Of a stretch of DNA of 64,000 nt, positions 39,805-45,659 are shown piece by piece. Where the stretch lies: positions 62,001-126,000 of the IMG/VR virus record IMGVR_UViG_3300031251_000001, one strand, 5' to 3'. The first letter of the stretch is position 1. Every line of letters starts with the position of its first letter. This DNA is from a virus. The position numbers were made by a program, and so were the translations under genes. The notes beneath the pieces were generated by a model. That model was not told where the DNA came from. It worked only from the letters and a program-made list of their open reading frames with translations, and searched no databases.

Positions 39805-40632
39805 CTAGCTCCGCTTCAGGCTGTTGAGTCTGGACAGGATGGATTGGTTCATAGGTCGCACCGATGGTAACGGACGCATAGCCGGCATGGCAACCCCATC
39901 TCCGGCATCGGAAGCCTGCTTACCCTGGAGAGGGTCGATCGGCTGGATGGGGTCGGTAGGCATGCCAGGGATACCCTGGGAAGGATCCTGACCGCCGCCT
40001 GCAGCTCCACCAGCACCGCCACCAGACATAGCTCCGCCTGGTTGTTGCTGCTGAGCCATCATCTCGTCCGGCGTGGCAACCATGTGGCTGGCGGGCATAG
40101 GAATGCCCTTAGCGTCGATCATGGCAGCGGCCAGCTTCTGGATAAGCACCAGACCGTTGTTGATGTCGACCTTGCTCTTGCCGCCCTCGCCCTGTTGGAC
40201 CAGGGTGGGCATGGAGTTCTGCACCTGGGTCAAGGCTGCCTGGATCACACCAGGATCAACCAACTCATTACCCGACTGCTTGCCCTGCTCGTCTTCAAGG
40301 ACAGCGCTCATCATGCGGATGCACTGGATGATAACCGAGCCTGGGTCGATCTTCACCTTGGGAGCCTGGGGCGGCATCATGCCGGGCATACCGGGTTGAC
40401 CCATGCCGGGTTGACCACCGGGGGCCATCATGCCGGGTTGCGGTTGGGGGATGTCCATAGGCTGATCAGGAGCAACGCCAGGAACGGGGGAACCGCCTCC
40501 CGATGGATCGGCAGGCGGTGCGCTGGCTCCTGGATCGTTACCACTGACTCCCGCCGGCATCATCCCGTCTGCTGTCTTGTAGAGACCGTAGTCAGCACGA
40601 CGACGGAGGCGAGCGAAAATGGAATCAGTCAT
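39805..40632 (-). CDS. low-complexity protein following beta/beta-prime-N
   Basis: This 275-residue protein is rich in P, G, M and Q in residues 20-90 and 185-250 (GMGQPGMPGMMPPQ-type). A helical middle has QKLAAAMIDAKGIPMPASHM. It begins MTDSIFARLRRRADYGLYKT, a basic N-terminus containing KTADG. It follows the polymerase gene by two bases. It may be a virion core protein; no family is recognised. Confidence 0.6.
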   Translation of the reverse strand: MTDSIFARLRRRADYGLYKTADGMMPAGVSGNDPGASAPPADPSGGGSPVPGVAPDQPMDIPQPQPGMMAPGGQPGMGQPGMPGMMPPQAPKVKIDPGSVIIQCIRMMSAVLEDEQGKQSGNELVDPGVIQAALTQVQNSMPTLVQQGEGGKSKVDINNGLVLIQKLAAAMIDAKGIPMPASHMVATPDEMMAQQQQPGGAMSGGGAGGAAGGGQDPSQGIPGMPTDPIQPIDPLQGKQASDAGDGVAMPAMRPLPSVRPMNQSILSRLNSLKRS

Positions 40633-40634
40633 GA

Positions 40635-43600
40635 CTACCCCTTGTCTTGCAAAATCTCGACCTCATCGTGAGGATCGATGGTTCTTTGTTCTAACGCTTT
40701 TAGCACATCCTGGATGTTGCGGAAAGTACGCAACGGACGTTTGCTCTTATTGGATGTTAGCTCATAGAGCCCACCCACGTACTCCTGTGACGGCATGGCC
40801 ACTGGTGTTTTACGGTCAGTCGGGCTGATCAGGTGCTTGCTGGGGAGCATGCGTTCGTAGGTCTCTTTTGCCGCCTCTTCGGTGGCGGGCACGTGGAACT
40901 GCGAGGCGTCGCCATCGAAGTCCATGTTGAAACCCTTGAGCACCAGCGTGGGCACGTGGACGGCGTTGCCGGCCACCAGCTGCGGACGGAAGCCCATATA
41001 GCCCAGTTTGTGGAGCACCGGGGCGCGATTCATTTGGACCGGCTTTTGATCCATGACGCGGAGAAGGGAGCGGTGTGCCTCGTCATCTTGTTGGTTGATC
41101 GATTCCATGGCGTTAGCCACCGTACGACCGCGGCGAACCATGTCACGAACGATCTCTTTCTTGTAGACATCGAACGCCAATCGCTTGGGGATACCGATCT
41201 GGTCCATGTTCAAGTCAGGGTTGGGCACCACTACCGAGCGACCAACCTGGTCCACGGCGGAGCCAATGAGACGCCGTTGAACCGTGCCCATTTTAGGATT
41301 GCTTCCAAAGATATGCTGCAGAACTCCCCGTACGTTGCGCTCCTTGGACTTCTTTGTAACAGGATCTCCAAGACCCGTGACTGCCTTGAGAGCGTTGTAG
41401 AGGGTGAGATGTTCTGGTCCGACGTAGTCATCGCCCATCTCCTTGTGGAAGTCCTTCACCGCTTCGTTGGCGGAGTGGAGTTCTTTATAGAGCGGGTTGG
41501 CGTCAGCCACCATAGGAACACCTGAGCCGCCCAGTGTCGAGATGCGACGGTAAGCAGGTGGGATCACTGGGGCGGACTTCAGGGTCCAATCGCGTGGGTG
41601 CATGCCCACACGTTTGGTGTCCATCATGTAGTACAGCTTCCGAATCGCTTCATCCCGCTTGGTCTTACTACCCGACTGAAATGCTTGTTTAGCCGTCGCA
41701 ATCTCATGGTCGAGGTTAATACCTTCCAACGCTTTGACGATCGCATCAGGGCCTGTCTTGCCATTCAAGTGCTCCTTCCCGGCCAGGATGTCCTCGAACT
41801 TGCCTTGCGTCAGACCGAGGACTCGTTTGACCGGGTCTTCCATGACCGGGTTGACGAGAGGAGTAACGAGAGGAATCTTCGACCACTTCATGCCGCCATG
41901 TCCACCGGTGATCTCCGGATCGAACAGGCCACCGGGAACGGGGTCCAGGGCTTCACCTGATTTGACCGTCTCGGCGTTCTTGAGGGTGCGACCCTCAGCC
42001 AGATCCTCGACTGACTTGTTAGTCATCGCCAGGAAGTGCGTACGCTTGCCGTCCGGCACGGGATCGATGCCAGCTGCCCGGAGTTGGGCCAGATATTTCT
42101 GGTAAACGGTGGTCGTGTGCGGCTCGACCGGCTTCTGTCCACGCTGATATTGCAGCCAGTAAGTGTCATTACGCTGGCCACGAACCAGGCCCGCATCGCG
42201 GAGGACTTCATAAGCACCGTGGGAAAGGATGGCGTTCACATCCAGGAGCGAGACGCGCTTGGAGTTGGAGACGTGAGCACCGTTCTTGAGGTAGTAGCTG
42301 GCACCGTCTTCGACCGTGATGTCGTAGACCTTCTCACCGGGCCTCTTGAACCGGGTGTAGATGGTGGCGACTACGAGCGTGGCCGGCCCATAAAGGCGTT
42401 GTGAACTTTTCCGAGGAAACCGCTCATGGCCCCGGTAAAGGTCTGTCCGATCGACGTCCGCATCCGCCGAACCAAGTCGGCGGTCGGCTTTGGACCTGGC
42501 TGGTCGAGCTTCTTGAATATGCTTTGCGTCCTTTCGGGCGTGAAGGCTGGTAAGACGTACGGTCGCTGCGGGGCAGCGGCTTCCTGGCCATCGATAGGGG
42601 CGGACTGCTGAGTGGGGTCCATCGCAATAAATCTCCTGACCGGGCTGCAGCAGATTAGCAGCGATCTTCGTGTCGTGGATAAAGAACTCGTGACCGGGGG
42701 TGCATTCCACCACGGAACCATCGGTGAAAGTGATGACCACCAAGTAACGGGGAGCATCGTACTCCATCCAATCGGTGATCTCGCGGTAGACCGGAATCAT
42801 GTTCTCGTTGAGCAGGACCTTCGTGGGAACGCGAACGGCTTTCCGCTTCTTGACAATCTCACCGATCGTGTCGGAACCGAACTCGGTCCACAGCTTGGTC
42901 GTCCCGACAAAGCAGCCACCGTAACCACCCTTGGCCGGCTCGTCATCCTGGTTATAGGCCCCGCTCGAGCGGGCCTGTCCCTTGGATTCCGAAGTGTGAT
43001 GCAGTTTCATCATGAAGCGGGTGCCGGTCGCCACGCCGGGGATCTTCTGTCCTGTCTCGGGATCGGTGATCTCTTCCGAGAGCTTCATGCCGTGTTTGCC
43101 CAACTCGTTGCGGACGTACTCGTCGTGATCTTGCCCAGTGAAATCCTTCACCAGGTAGGGTTGACCTGTCTTGCGGGCGATCTTCCCCAGGCCGAGCTCG
43201 TGGGCCTGGGCAGCGTTGGTGCGGGAGATCATGCCGTTGGGGCTGAGCAGTAGCTCGAAGGGGTTGCCGTCTTTGTCGTGCGGCATCTGGCTGTCAGGAA
43301 GGATCTTCGAGATCACCCCCTTATCACCGAAACGCCCTGAGAGCTTATCCGCCTCTACAGTCGGGTGGTAGGATTTGACGATGACGACGGGGCCTTTCTT
43401 GCCCTGCTGCACGTCCACGACTTCACCATCGTGGTCATGGTCCCAGGCGACCGAGGCGTCCTGCCAGGAGTCCGACTTGCGTCGCAGGAGGCGGTTGGGA
43501 TTCATGCCCTTCTGCTTGGCGGCGACGATGAGTGGCTGACCGTGGGTGACCTTCTGGCCGACCTTGATGACGCCAGTGTCGTCCATCTTGCCGAGCTGCT

Positions 43601-45659
43601 CACGAGTGAAGCGGCCAGGGAACAGATCAGAGAAGGCCTGGCGGCCCTGCTTGGTCTTGTTGTCGACCTCCAGCTCGTGCTGGTAGGCGTGCTCTGAAGT
43701 CATCTTCCTGGCAAGAGAATCCGAGATGACCACGGCGTCGTTGTGATTAAGGCCCTTCCAGGGGACGTAGGCGGAGTAAGCATTGATGCCCATCGCCATG
43801 GTCCCGTGCTGATCGGTATAGTTGCTGCCGGCGAGAAGCTGACCCTTCTGTACGGTGCTGCCTTCCTGGACAATGGGTTCCTGGTTGAGCAGGGACTTAC
43901 GGTTGAAGGGCAGGTTCTTGTAGTAGGGCTTGATGCTGGTCGTGCCGTCCGGGTGCTGCATGTGGATTTCATCTTCCGTCACCTTCGTCACACGACCAGG
44001 CTTATCGGCCGCGACGGCTCCAAAACGATGACCCAACCATTGTTCGTAGGGCTGGTTGGTCTCCTCGTCCACGTTCTGTACGTGAGGAGCCTCGCGATGC
44101 TGGAGGGATAGCGCCTGCATGTACATGCGGGCACCCATGGAGTTTCGCTGTCCCTTGTTGGAGCTCTGGAACGGGATGGTGTTGGTCAGCGGGCTGAAGT
44201 TACGCGACCCGTGCGGGGAGACATAATCCAGCTCGGACTTCTTGGCATAGTCGAGCTCACCGTTGCGGATCACCGGCACATAATCATTCTTCGATTCCAT
44301 CGACTTGTAGAAGCCGATCGTCTTGCCGGCCAGGTCCTGGGGCGATCGCCACAGCTTCTTGCCGCTCTTGGGATCGATGAACTGGCTGTAGAGCCTGCCG
44401 TCGCTGCCTTTGCGTGAAGCAACGCTGGCAGAGAGATCGACGCCGGCCCGTTCCGATTCCGGTGTCTTGACGACATCAAGGAAGCCCAGGTGCGAGTTCT
44501 GCACCGAGCGGGCCTCCAGCGGGATGGCAGCTCCGGAGATGCCACCCTCACCCATGCGGGTGACGTTATGCAGGCGGTCAGCAAACTCAGAGGTATTGAT
44601 TTCTTCCAGGGGCTGGGCGACGCCGCTGCGCAGCAGGACGTGATCCAGTTGATGGGTCAGGGCACCCGAAGGCATGTGCTGCAGGTGGCCCGCTTTGGAC
44701 ATCTTGTAGAGGAGTTTCTTCTGCCAACCCTCAGAATCCTTGGCGATACGCTCGGCAAAGAGGTCTTCTGGCCCCAGGAACTTCTGATACTCGAGCGCGT
44801 CACGATCATCGGGTTTGGCCTCGCCCCGGTTGATCTTGATCAGCTTACTGGTGGCAGCCAGGAGCACGTCCTTGTTGAGCGTGGGGCTGACGTTGCCGAT
44901 CGTGCTCTTGTTGACGAACGGATTGACCTTGTAGCCCTGATACTTCTCGACGAGCTTGGCGATACGATCGACGCCCGGTGCCGCCAGCTCTTCTTTGGAG
45001 AGTAGCTTGTGAGACAGTCGATCAAGTGCGTCACGTTCCTTGACCCCGCGGTTGGACTGGGCGATCTCTTTGCCCCAGTGGTGTTCGATCTCGTCGTCCT
45101 TGGCTCCCATGGCGGTCAGCAGCGGCAGGAGGGGTGCGGTGGATCCGGCGATGTTGAGATGGAAGGTGCCCTTGTCGGGATCGAAGCCGATGCGGTGCGT
45201 CAGGCCTTCACCAGGAAGGATATTGAGGTAAGTCTCCAGTTCGCCGTTACCTTTGCGTCGGTTGTAGACGCCCGGTTCGAGACGCTGTTGGTTACGAACG
45301 GCGTACTTGGTCCCGTTACGCACGACGGTCCCGAAGTCGCTAAAGTGTGGCACGGTGGCAACGACTTGCTTGCGGGAGTCAACCATCTTGTCGGTGGCAT
45401 TGTCGTAGAGCTCCCACGTCCCTTCGACACGCCGGCCCAGCGATCCACGCGAGAGGATGGCCTTCTTGACCTCGCTGGGCTTGCGGTATTCAGGGTCGAT
45501 ATATTTGGGGTTGGTGAGCTTGAGCGTGTGCGTGCGATTCTTCACCGGGGGCAGATTCTGCATAGCACCGAGCACGTTGCCGTACACGTTTTTACGCAAC
45601 GCCCCAGTATCGCCGAACTCACGGAGGGTCACTCCCTCCGGGACTCCATCGAGATCCAT
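40635..45659 (-). CDS. RNA polymerase beta fused to N-terminal part of beta-prime, with intein
   Basis: This is a 1,674-residue precursor. The first about 1,250 residues, less the intein, are a beta subunit. The catalytic lysine motif is KLSGRFGDKGVISKILP (about 772-788, both lysines present), followed by PNGMISRTNAAQAHE. The C-terminal beta motif is interrupted by a 217-residue intein (916-1132). Beta-prime then starts in the same chain (GLFDPEI, SAPVIPPAYR, VDQVGRSVVVPNP). The active-site loop NMDFDGD (residues 1578-1584) keeps all three metal-binding aspartates. The chain ends shortly after, near the PSQEYVGGLYELT block, and beta-prime continues in a separate gene at 34994-38695. The beta-prime N-terminal zinc site is absent. 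ATG 45659 follows GGAG. Beta/beta-prime fusions and split beta-prime genes are known separately in bacteria and jumbo phages; the encoded enzyme is presumably active. Confidence 0.9.
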   Translation of the reverse strand: MDLDGVPEGVTLREFGDTGALRKNVYGNVLGAMQNLPPVKNRTHTLKLTNPKYIDPEYRKPSEVKKAILSRGSLGRRVEGTWELYDNATDKMVDSRKQVVATVPHFSDFGTVVRNGTKYAVRNQQRLEPGVYNRRKGNGELETYLNILPGEGLTHRIGFDPDKGTFHLNIAGSTAPLLPLLTAMGAKDDEIEHHWGKEIAQSNRGVKERDALDRLSHKLLSKEELAAPGVDRIAKLVEKYQGYKVNPFVNKSTIGNVSPTLNKDVLLAATSKLIKINRGEAKPDDRDALEYQKFLGPEDLFAERIAKDSEGWQKKLLYKMSKAGHLQHMPSGALTHQLDHVLLRSGVAQPLEEINTSEFADRLHNVTRMGEGGISGAAIPLEARSVQNSHLGFLDVVKTPESERAGVDLSASVASRKGSDGRLYSQFIDPKSGKKLWRSPQDLAGKTIGFYKSMESKNDYVPVIRNGELDYAKKSELDYVSPHGSRNFSPLTNTIPFQSSNKGQRNSMGARMYMQALSLQHREAPHVQNVDEETNQPYEQWLGHRFGAVAADKPGRVTKVTEDEIHMQHPDGTTSIKPYYKNLPFNRKSLLNQEPIVQEGSTVQKGQLLAGSNYTDQHGTMAMGINAYSAYVPWKGLNHNDAVVISDSLARKMTSEHAYQHELEVDNKTKQGRQAFSDLFPGRFTREQLGKMDDTGVIKVGQKVTHGQPLIVAAKQKGMNPNRLLRRKSDSWQDASVAWDHDHDGEVVDVQQGKKGPVVIVKSYHPTVEADKLSGRFGDKGVISKILPDSQMPHDKDGNPFELLLSPNGMISRTNAAQAHELGLGKIARKTGQPYLVKDFTGQDHDEYVRNELGKHGMKLSEEITDPETGQKIPGVATGTRFMMKLHHTSESKGQARSSGAYNQDDEPAKGGYGGCFVGTTKLWTEFGSDTIGEIVKKRKAVRVPTKVLLNENMIPVYREITDWMEYDAPRYLVVITFTDGSVVECTPGHEFFIHDTKIAANLLQPGQEIYCDGPHSAVRPYRWPGSRCPAATVRLTSLHARKDAKHIQEARPARSKADRRLGSADADVDRTDLYRGHERFPRKSSQRLYGPATLVVATIYTRFKRPGEKVYDITVEDGASYYLKNGAHVSNSKRVSLLDVNAILSHGAYEVLRDAGLVRGQRNDTYWLQYQRGQKPVEPHTTTVYQKYLAQLRAAGIDPVPDGKRTHFLAMTNKSVEDLAEGRTLKNAETVKSGEALDPVPGGLFDPEITGGHGGMKWSKIPLVTPLVNPVMEDPVKRVLGLTQGKFEDILAGKEHLNGKTGPDAIVKALEGINLDHEIATAKQAFQSGSKTKRDEAIRKLYYMMDTKRVGMHPRDWTLKSAPVIPPAYRRISTLGGSGVPMVADANPLYKELHSANEAVKDFHKEMGDDYVGPEHLTLYNALKAVTGLGDPVTKKSKERNVRGVLQHIFGSNPKMGTVQRRLIGSAVDQVGRSVVVPNPDLNMDQIGIPKRLAFDVYKKEIVRDMVRRGRTVANAMESINQQDDEAHRSLLRVMDQKPVQMNRAPVLHKLGYMGFRPQLVAGNAVHVPTLVLKGFNMDFDGDASQFHVPATEEAAKETYERMLPSKHLISPTDRKTPVAMPSQEYVGGLYELTSNKSKRPLRTFRNIQDVLKALEQRTIDPHDEVEILQDKG
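42264..42914 (-). other. intein in the beta subunit
   Basis: This is a 217-codon in-frame insertion between GGYGG and SKRVSLLDVNAILSHGAY, inside the conserved beta motif GGQRFGEMEVWALEAYGA. It begins with Cys (CFVGTTKLWTEFGSDTIGEI, block A), has TPGHEF (block B, T-x-x-H) and VYDITVEDGASYYL (block F), and ends HVSN followed by Ser (+1). The residue before the terminal Asn is Ser instead of the usual His. There is no LAGLIDADG or HNH endonuclease, only an about 80-residue linker. Residues essential for splicing appear present, so it should be removed from the polymerase. Confidence 0.85.
42371..42622 (-). CDS. nested ORF inside the intein linker, 83 codons, different frame
   Basis: It starts at ATG 42622..42620, ten bases after AGGAG (42637..42633), and ends at TAG 42373..42371. 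The encoded peptide begins MDPTQQSAPIDGQEAAAPQR and has an amphipathic C-terminal half (TADLVRRMRTSIGQTFTGAM, SGFLGKVHNAF). By hand count, third positions are about 72% G+C in this frame but about 53% in the intein frame over the same bases. The first value matches real genes here. The intein frame across this stretch looks like an untypical R/P-rich sequence. It may be a separate overprinted gene. Alternatively, a linker once read in this frame is now bypassed by two compensating frameshifts. Confidence 0.5.
   Translation of the reverse strand: MDPTQQSAPIDGQEAAAPQRPYVLPAFTPERTQSIFKKLDQPGPKPTADLVRRMRTSIGQTFTGAMSGFLGKVHNAFMGRPRS

What the first reader, a model, noticed from the sequence alone, without database searches (positions are those of the whole stretch)
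42371..42622. Overprinted 83-codon gene candidate inside the intein linker
A complete frame with AGGAG, ATG and TAG sits exactly where the intein frame stops looking like protein. Third-position G+C by hand count is about 72% in the nested frame against about 53% in the intein frame, and the nested peptide has a credible amphipathic C-terminal half. Either a new gene arose or was inserted inside an intein that lost its endonuclease, or two compensating frameshifts changed the frame of the linker.
Basis: seen in the sequence. Interest (0 to 1): 0.85.

Follow-up and report, generated by a model that had tools for sequence, protein, structure and literature searches.

The report
Gene overprinted inside a phage intein
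In a large phage, the self-excising segment (intein) of its RNA polymerase has lost its DNA-cutting domain and carries a small gene there instead, written in another reading frame; related phages have the same intein cut in two around a small gene, so this may show how split inteins arise.

Summary
The 83-codon frame at 42371-42622(-) has a strong ribosome-binding site, an ATG and a TAG. It fills the homing-endonuclease position of an intein in a fused beta-beta' phage RNA polymerase gene (40635-45659). Codon statistics place the coding signal in the nested frame: it scores above all 766 off-frame control windows, while the intein frame scores below all 383 true coding windows. A model of the intein folds confidently on both sides of this stretch and is disordered across it.

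Relatives in IMG/VR carry an intein at the same site in other states: two full LAGLIDADG inteins, one contiguous mini-intein, one bare split intein, and two split inteins whose halves are separated by a non-endonuclease gene. In the window the through-frame is open and the C-half has no start codon or Shine-Dalgarno, so the polymerase must be translated through the nested gene.

Best reading: a contiguous, cis-splicing intein whose linker is overprinted by a captured small gene. Two compensating frameshifts are disfavoured. Homology of the nested gene to the genes in the split relatives is not shown. Expression, splicing and function are untested, and no close relative exists for a conservation test.

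The parts
40635..45659 (-). fused beta-beta' multisubunit-type phage RNA polymerase gene (1674 aa) that hosts the intein
   Evidence: Pfam RNA_pol_Rpb2_6 E=1.2e-48 and Rpb1_2 E=9.8e-24; tblastn to Salmonella phage Arash and Vibrio phage D69 RNAP
42264..42914 (-). intein, 217 aa (C1 ... N, then +1 Ser), inserted between GGYGG and SKRVS; absent from most relatives
   Evidence: alignment to inteinless RNAPs; Hint fold, best PDB match Mtu RecA intein splicing domain E=7.8e-9
42621..42914 (-). intein N-half (IntN), ends in LLQPGQEIYCD
   Evidence: aligned to IntN of L036, L037, L038, L120, L134, L031; codon log-odds 0.544
42633..42637 (-). AGGAG Shine-Dalgarno of the nested gene, made of the CAG GAG codons at the end of IntN
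   Evidence: duplex energy -7.4; L036 and L038 also carry the SD of their inserted gene in the last IntN codons
42371..42622 (-). nested 83-aa gene in the frame that starts 1 base after the intein codon boundary; fills the homing-endonuclease/split site
   Evidence: codon statistics, synonymous-codon test, boundary test, predicted helices 29-39 and 48-78 at pLDDT about 70-80
42375..42620 (-). intein-frame linker (82 codons, no stop, no ATG/GTG/TTG), overprinted by the nested gene, predicted disordered
   Evidence: open frame; codon log-odds -0.211; start-codon list; pLDDT below 50
42371..42374 (-). GTAG: nested stop TAG overlapping the first IntC codon (GTA), at about the place where split relatives have ATGA or GTGA
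   Evidence: sequence
42264..42374 (-). intein C-half (IntC): VVATIYTRFKRPGEKVYDITVEDGASYYLKNGAHVSN
   Evidence: aligned to six same-site IntC; codon log-odds 0.685

Best explanation
The RNA polymerase gene carries a contiguous intein without an endonuclease. At the conserved endonuclease-insertion site, the gap between the two Hint halves is filled by a small foreign or captured gene in another frame. Inferred working: ribosomes on the polymerase frame read straight through the gene in the wrong frame, making an 80-residue disordered linker; the Hint domain folds and splices in cis, so the junk linker leaves with the intein and the polymerase is restored. Other ribosomes start at the internal AGGAG-ATG and make the 83-residue, mostly helical protein, whose function is unknown (probably a small phage accessory or virion protein). 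Splicing out the linker shields the polymerase from the inserted coding sequence, and the need to make the polymerase keeps the through-frame open. Shown here: the frames, codon signal, SD, disorder, missing C-half start, and split or full-length alleles at the same site. Inferred: expression of both products, splicing, and function of the small protein.
For: Coding signal in the nested frame, not the intein frame. Nested codons follow genome usage far better than uniform synonymous choice (0 of 2000), while the linker's do not (0.134). Strong SD. The intein frame is open although only 2.6% of real-gene windows in that relative frame are, and only 10.5% of synonymous versions of the nested protein would be. 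No ATG/GTG/TTG in the intein frame between the halves and no SD before the C-half (-3.5 against -5.9 to -11.6 in split relatives), so the C-half needs the through-frame. Hint fold on both sides with a disordered middle. Same-site alleles: full LAGLIDADG inteins L031 and L134, mini-intein L120, bare split L037/L118, split plus 134-aa gene L038, split plus 637-aa gene L036.
Against: No relative close enough for a conservation or dN/dS test (best RNAP identity 51%). The nested protein has no homologue in Pfam, PHROGs, phages, IMG/VR or GTDB genomes. Its similarity to the genes in the split relatives is not significant (p about 0.02 to 0.12). Its codon score is at the low end of true genes (3.7th percentile), compatible with decay as well as with double constraint. 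One contig, no reads, no expression data.
Confidence: 0.72

Rival explanations
1. Re-fused split intein: the ancestor was a split intein with a gene between the halves, as in L036 and L038. A small indel at the IntN end removed the stop and joined IntN, the gene in the wrong frame, and IntC into one frame; the C-half start codon then decayed to GTA.
For: Same architecture: gene starts at the last IntN codons and its stop overlaps the first IntC codon by 4 nt. The intein tree places the window weakly with the split inteins (73/64).
Against: Polymerase tree puts the window outside the split clade (99 support), so a horizontal transfer is needed. Homology of the inserted genes is not shown. No start codon or SD remnant at IntC.
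Confidence: 0.3
2. Two compensating frameshifts changed the frame of an ordinary intein linker; the nested frame is the old linker and there is no gene.
For: Nested frame carries the coding signal and runs from one Hint half to the other.
Against: No similarity to same-site endonuclease domains. SD, ATG and stop at both ends are unexplained (0.5% by chance). Same-site relatives have real separate genes in this gap.
Confidence: 0.12
3. Chance ORF in a degenerate linker: the intein frame is the only product and the nested frame is noise.
For: Recoding the linker peptide leaves the nested frame open in 35% of trials, so openness alone is not rare.
Against: Codon score above all 766 off-frame windows, typical GC3, strong SD, boundary match 0.5%.
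Confidence: 0.06
4. Pseudogene: a gene was captured in the gap but is no longer expressed and survives only as a linker that must stay open in the intein frame.
For: Codon score at the 3.7th percentile of true windows and 2nd percentile for synonymous usage; no homologue found.
Against: Start, SD and full open frame are intact; double constraint explains the lower score as well.
Confidence: 0.2

Closest known systems
Fractured genes: split inteins with a free-standing homing-endonuclease gene between the halves (Dassa et al. 2009, doi 10.1093/nar/gkp095; paper not held, known from citations and my own knowledge)
   Same: A separate gene sits between intein halves at the canonical split site; L036 and L038 at this very site have that layout.
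   Different: The window is not split: the through-frame is open and needed. The gene shows no endonuclease signature here and overlaps the intein coding sequence in another frame.
[quoted passage not shown]
   Same: An insertion open in the host frame while the real coding frame is another one, with start and stop near its ends.
   Different: ShiLan is not an intein (no splicing domain) and encodes a homing endonuclease; here a Hint intein removes the insertion and the gene is not recognisably an endonuclease.
Contiguous mini-inteins that lost the endonuclease (for example Mtu RecA splicing domain, L120 here)
   Same: Hint fold, catalytic Cys1, Asn-Ser end, short linker in place of the endonuclease.
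   Different: The linker here is about 80 residues and is the off-frame reading of another gene.
Full LAGLIDADG inteins at the same site (L031, L134)
   Same: Same insertion site, alignable halves.
   Different: They carry a 230-residue endonuclease in the intein frame and no second gene.

Membership tests
Inteins (Hint self-splicing elements) | Hint fold | tested here: met
   AlphaFold model pLDDT above 90 in the halves, Foldseek best hits are intein splicing domains, E=7.8e-9; Pfam Intein_splicing only 16.7 bits, below its cut-off 35.8
Inteins (Hint self-splicing elements) | catalytic residues: Cys1, block B TxxH, block F Asp, C-terminal Asn and +1 Ser/Cys/Thr | tested here: met
   C, TPGH, VYDITV, VSN then S; aligned in seven same-site inteins; penultimate residue is Ser, not His, in all of them
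Inteins (Hint self-splicing elements) | insertion absent from relatives at a conserved extein point | tested here: met
Inteins (Hint self-splicing elements) | protein splicing | not testable with these tools
   needs expression
Split inteins / fractured genes | IntN ends in a stop and IntC has its own start | tested here: not met
   no stop through 82 codons, no ATG/GTG/TTG and no SD before IntC
Split inteins / fractured genes | separate gene between the halves | tested here: met
   present, but overlapping the through-frame
Homing-endonuclease-bearing insertion (LAGLIDADG, HNH, GIY-YIG) | endonuclease motif in the insert | tested here: not met
   no Pfam or PHROG hit; no similarity to same-site LAGLIDADG domains
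Overlapping (overprinted) gene pair | coding signal in the nested frame beyond chance | tested here: met
Overlapping (overprinted) gene pair | both frames constrained across relatives | tested here: inconclusive
   no close relative found; openness of the intein frame argues for constraint
Overlapping (overprinted) gene pair | nested product is made | not testable with these tools
   needs profiling or proteomics
Gene family inserted in L036 and L038 | sequence homology of the inserted gene | tested here: inconclusive
   L036 and L038 genes match each other at both ends (0 of 5000 shuffles); window gene p about 0.02 to 0.12

The most novel reading that the evidence does not exclude
A living intermediate on the path between contiguous and split inteins: a non-endonuclease gene has replaced the endonuclease inside a polymerase intein and doubles, in the other frame, as the disordered linker of a still cis-splicing intein. 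One new stop and one new start would make the split, gene-carrying form seen in two related phages.
Probability: 0.4. Interest if true: 0.82.

Novelty: new variant of a known kind. Interest (0 to 1): 0.7.

Why it matters
How contiguous inteins become split inteins is an open question usually answered with 'a break in the coding region' (PMC7765530). Here one insertion site in one polymerase family shows full endonuclease, mini, bare split, split with an inserted gene, and an unsplit form with an overprinted gene. That gives a testable series: a gene captured in the endonuclease gap first, frame kept open by selection, stop and start later. It also suggests that an intein can serve as a safe landing pad for genes other than homing endonucleases, since whatever peptide the host frame produces there would be spliced out.

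Tried and rejected
Close relatives of the nested protein: none in IMG/VR, GTDB genomes, GenBank phages, Pfam or PHROGs, nor in eight related phages searched whole. Close relatives of the phage by RNAP, capsid protein and DNA: none near. Homology to the L036/L038 genes by pairwise, C-terminal and two-sequence profile tests: suggestive, not significant. In one search the L036 protein was read one base off, so only its L038 comparison counts. Derivation of the nested frame or linker from the LAGLIDADG domain: no signal. Amphipathic helix: predicted helix, moment not above shuffles. Intein tree to decide the direction of change: unresolved. Last viral scan with a split-clade N-half alignment: no new allele.

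Full report
OBSERVATION. The window is 62,001-126,000 of a 214,229-base virus record. The reported frame exists at 42371-42622 on the minus strand and encodes 83 residues. It lies inside a 1674-codon frame, 40635-45659(-), whose product is a fused beta-beta' RNA polymerase (Pfam and PHROG hits; tblastn to Salmonella phage Arash and Vibrio phages). Aligning it with inteinless polymerases shows a 217-residue insertion, residues 916-1132, beginning with Cys and ending Asn-Ser. Pfam's intein model is only suggestive, but the predicted structure is a confident Hint fold matching intein splicing domains (E=7.8e-9). Intein residues 100-175, which are the nested interval, are disordered in the model.

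IS THE NESTED FRAME CODING? A codon model from 36 genes of the window plus the two polymerase flanks gives the nested frame 0.194. That is above every one of 766 off-frame windows and within the range of true windows (3.7th percentile). The intein frame over the same bases gives -0.200, below every true window and typical of off-frame reading. IntN (0.544) and IntC (0.685) on either side are ordinary coding sequence. GC3 is 0.72 against 0.53. Synonymous choices in the nested frame follow genome usage (better than all 2000 uniform draws, somewhat worse than typical), whereas those of the linker frame do not. The SD of the nested ATG is as strong as that of good genes; 4.9% of internal out-of-frame ATGs match it. 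An ATG-started ORF in another frame whose two ends fall on two given boundaries occurs at 0.5% of positions. The nested peptide, folded without an alignment, gives two helices at moderate confidence.

IS THE INTEIN FRAME NEEDED? Between IntN and IntC the intein frame has no ATG, GTG or TTG and IntC has no SD, so the second half of the polymerase can be made only by reading through. An 84-codon opening in that relative frame occurs in 2.6% of windows of real genes and in 10.5% of synonymous versions of the nested protein. It must also join IntN to IntC in phase, roughly a further one in three. This suggests, without proving, that selection keeps the through-frame open.

RELATIVES AT THE SAME SITE. 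Scans of IMG/VR with polymerase and intein alignments gave many inteinless genes and seven further contigs (six distinct alleles) with an intein at exactly this point. L031 and L134 are full inteins with LAGLIDADG domains. L120 is a contiguous mini-intein of 149 residues. L037 and L118 (two contigs) are bare split inteins: IntN stops, and IntC restarts about 30 nt later with its own SD and ATG. L038 is split around a 134-codon gene whose ATG overlaps the IntN stop (TGATG) and whose own stop overlaps the IntC start (ATGA). L036 is split around a 637-codon gene, again with GTGA at its end. The L036 and L038 genes are homologous to each other at both ends (0 of 5000 shuffles) and are not recognisable endonucleases. 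In the window the nested stop and the first IntC codon overlap in the same way (GTAG), but the codon is GTA, not a start.

WHAT IT IS. The evidence fits a contiguous intein whose endonuclease position is occupied by a small gene in another frame, with the intein's linker reduced to the off-frame reading of that gene. Two products are expected: a spliced polymerase and the 83-residue protein. Splicing would remove the off-frame peptide, which is why the polymerase can tolerate the insertion. The function of the small protein is unknown; no family matches it.

DIRECTION OF CHANGE. In the polymerase tree the split alleles form one group (99) to which the window does not belong. The intein tree is unresolved. 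The window may have captured a gene while remaining contiguous (which makes it a model for the step before splitting), or have re-fused a horizontally acquired split intein. Homology of its gene to those of L036 and L038, which would favour the second, is not demonstrated (p about 0.02 to 0.12).

COMPARISON WITH THE LITERATURE. Split inteins with a free-standing endonuclease gene between the halves are known as fractured genes (Dassa et al. 2009, cited in PMC7090010 and PMC10448857; the paper itself was not held). A phage methylase insertion that is open in the host frame but encodes an HNH endonuclease in another frame is known as the ShiLan domain (PMC11855218). The conserved endonuclease insertion site of inteins is discussed in PMC6801210. 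I found no paper describing an intein overprinted by a non-endonuclease gene, nor a split intein around such a gene, within the open-licence library searched; subscription papers were not searchable.

LIMITS. One contig without reads; no sister phage; no expression data. The openness tests use the codon usage of one window. The synonymous resampling was used only to obtain null distributions. The confidences given to the explanations are not exclusive: the re-fusion rival is a different history for the same present-day anatomy.

Noticed in passing
L036:6832-8742 and L038:6828-7229: Split-intein RNA polymerase genes carry a non-endonuclease gene between the halves, apparently translationally coupled (TGATG/ATGA in L038, GTGA in L036). 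The two genes match at both ends (MxxLxxLAAKAAxLRxK and RGxTxxAxxGxxxFWxR) but not in the middle.
   Followed up: partly
RNA polymerase loci L021, L027, L031, L037, L051, L080, L099, L103, L111, L134, L155, L171, L174 and others: The fused beta-beta' polymerase of this phage group is a hotspot for intein-like insertions: about ten distinct points, with up to five in one gene (L080).
   Followed up: partly
L003 2944-3842 (Vibrio phage D181; D148 alike): The polymerase of Vibrio phage D181 is interrupted by a free-standing homing endonuclease gene while close relative D69 is intact: a fractured-gene-like layout whose polymerase halves are annotated only as hypothetical proteins.
   Followed up: no
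L009, L012, L019, L028, L035 near polymerase position 1077-1088: Several relatives have the polymerase split into two genes at one other point, with no sign of an intein seen; in L012 about four unrelated ORFs lie between the halves.
   Followed up: no
window 39805-40632(-): The gene next to the polymerase is a low-complexity Pro/Gly/Gln-rich protein that by eye appears to have a counterpart beside the polymerase in L062.
   Followed up: no
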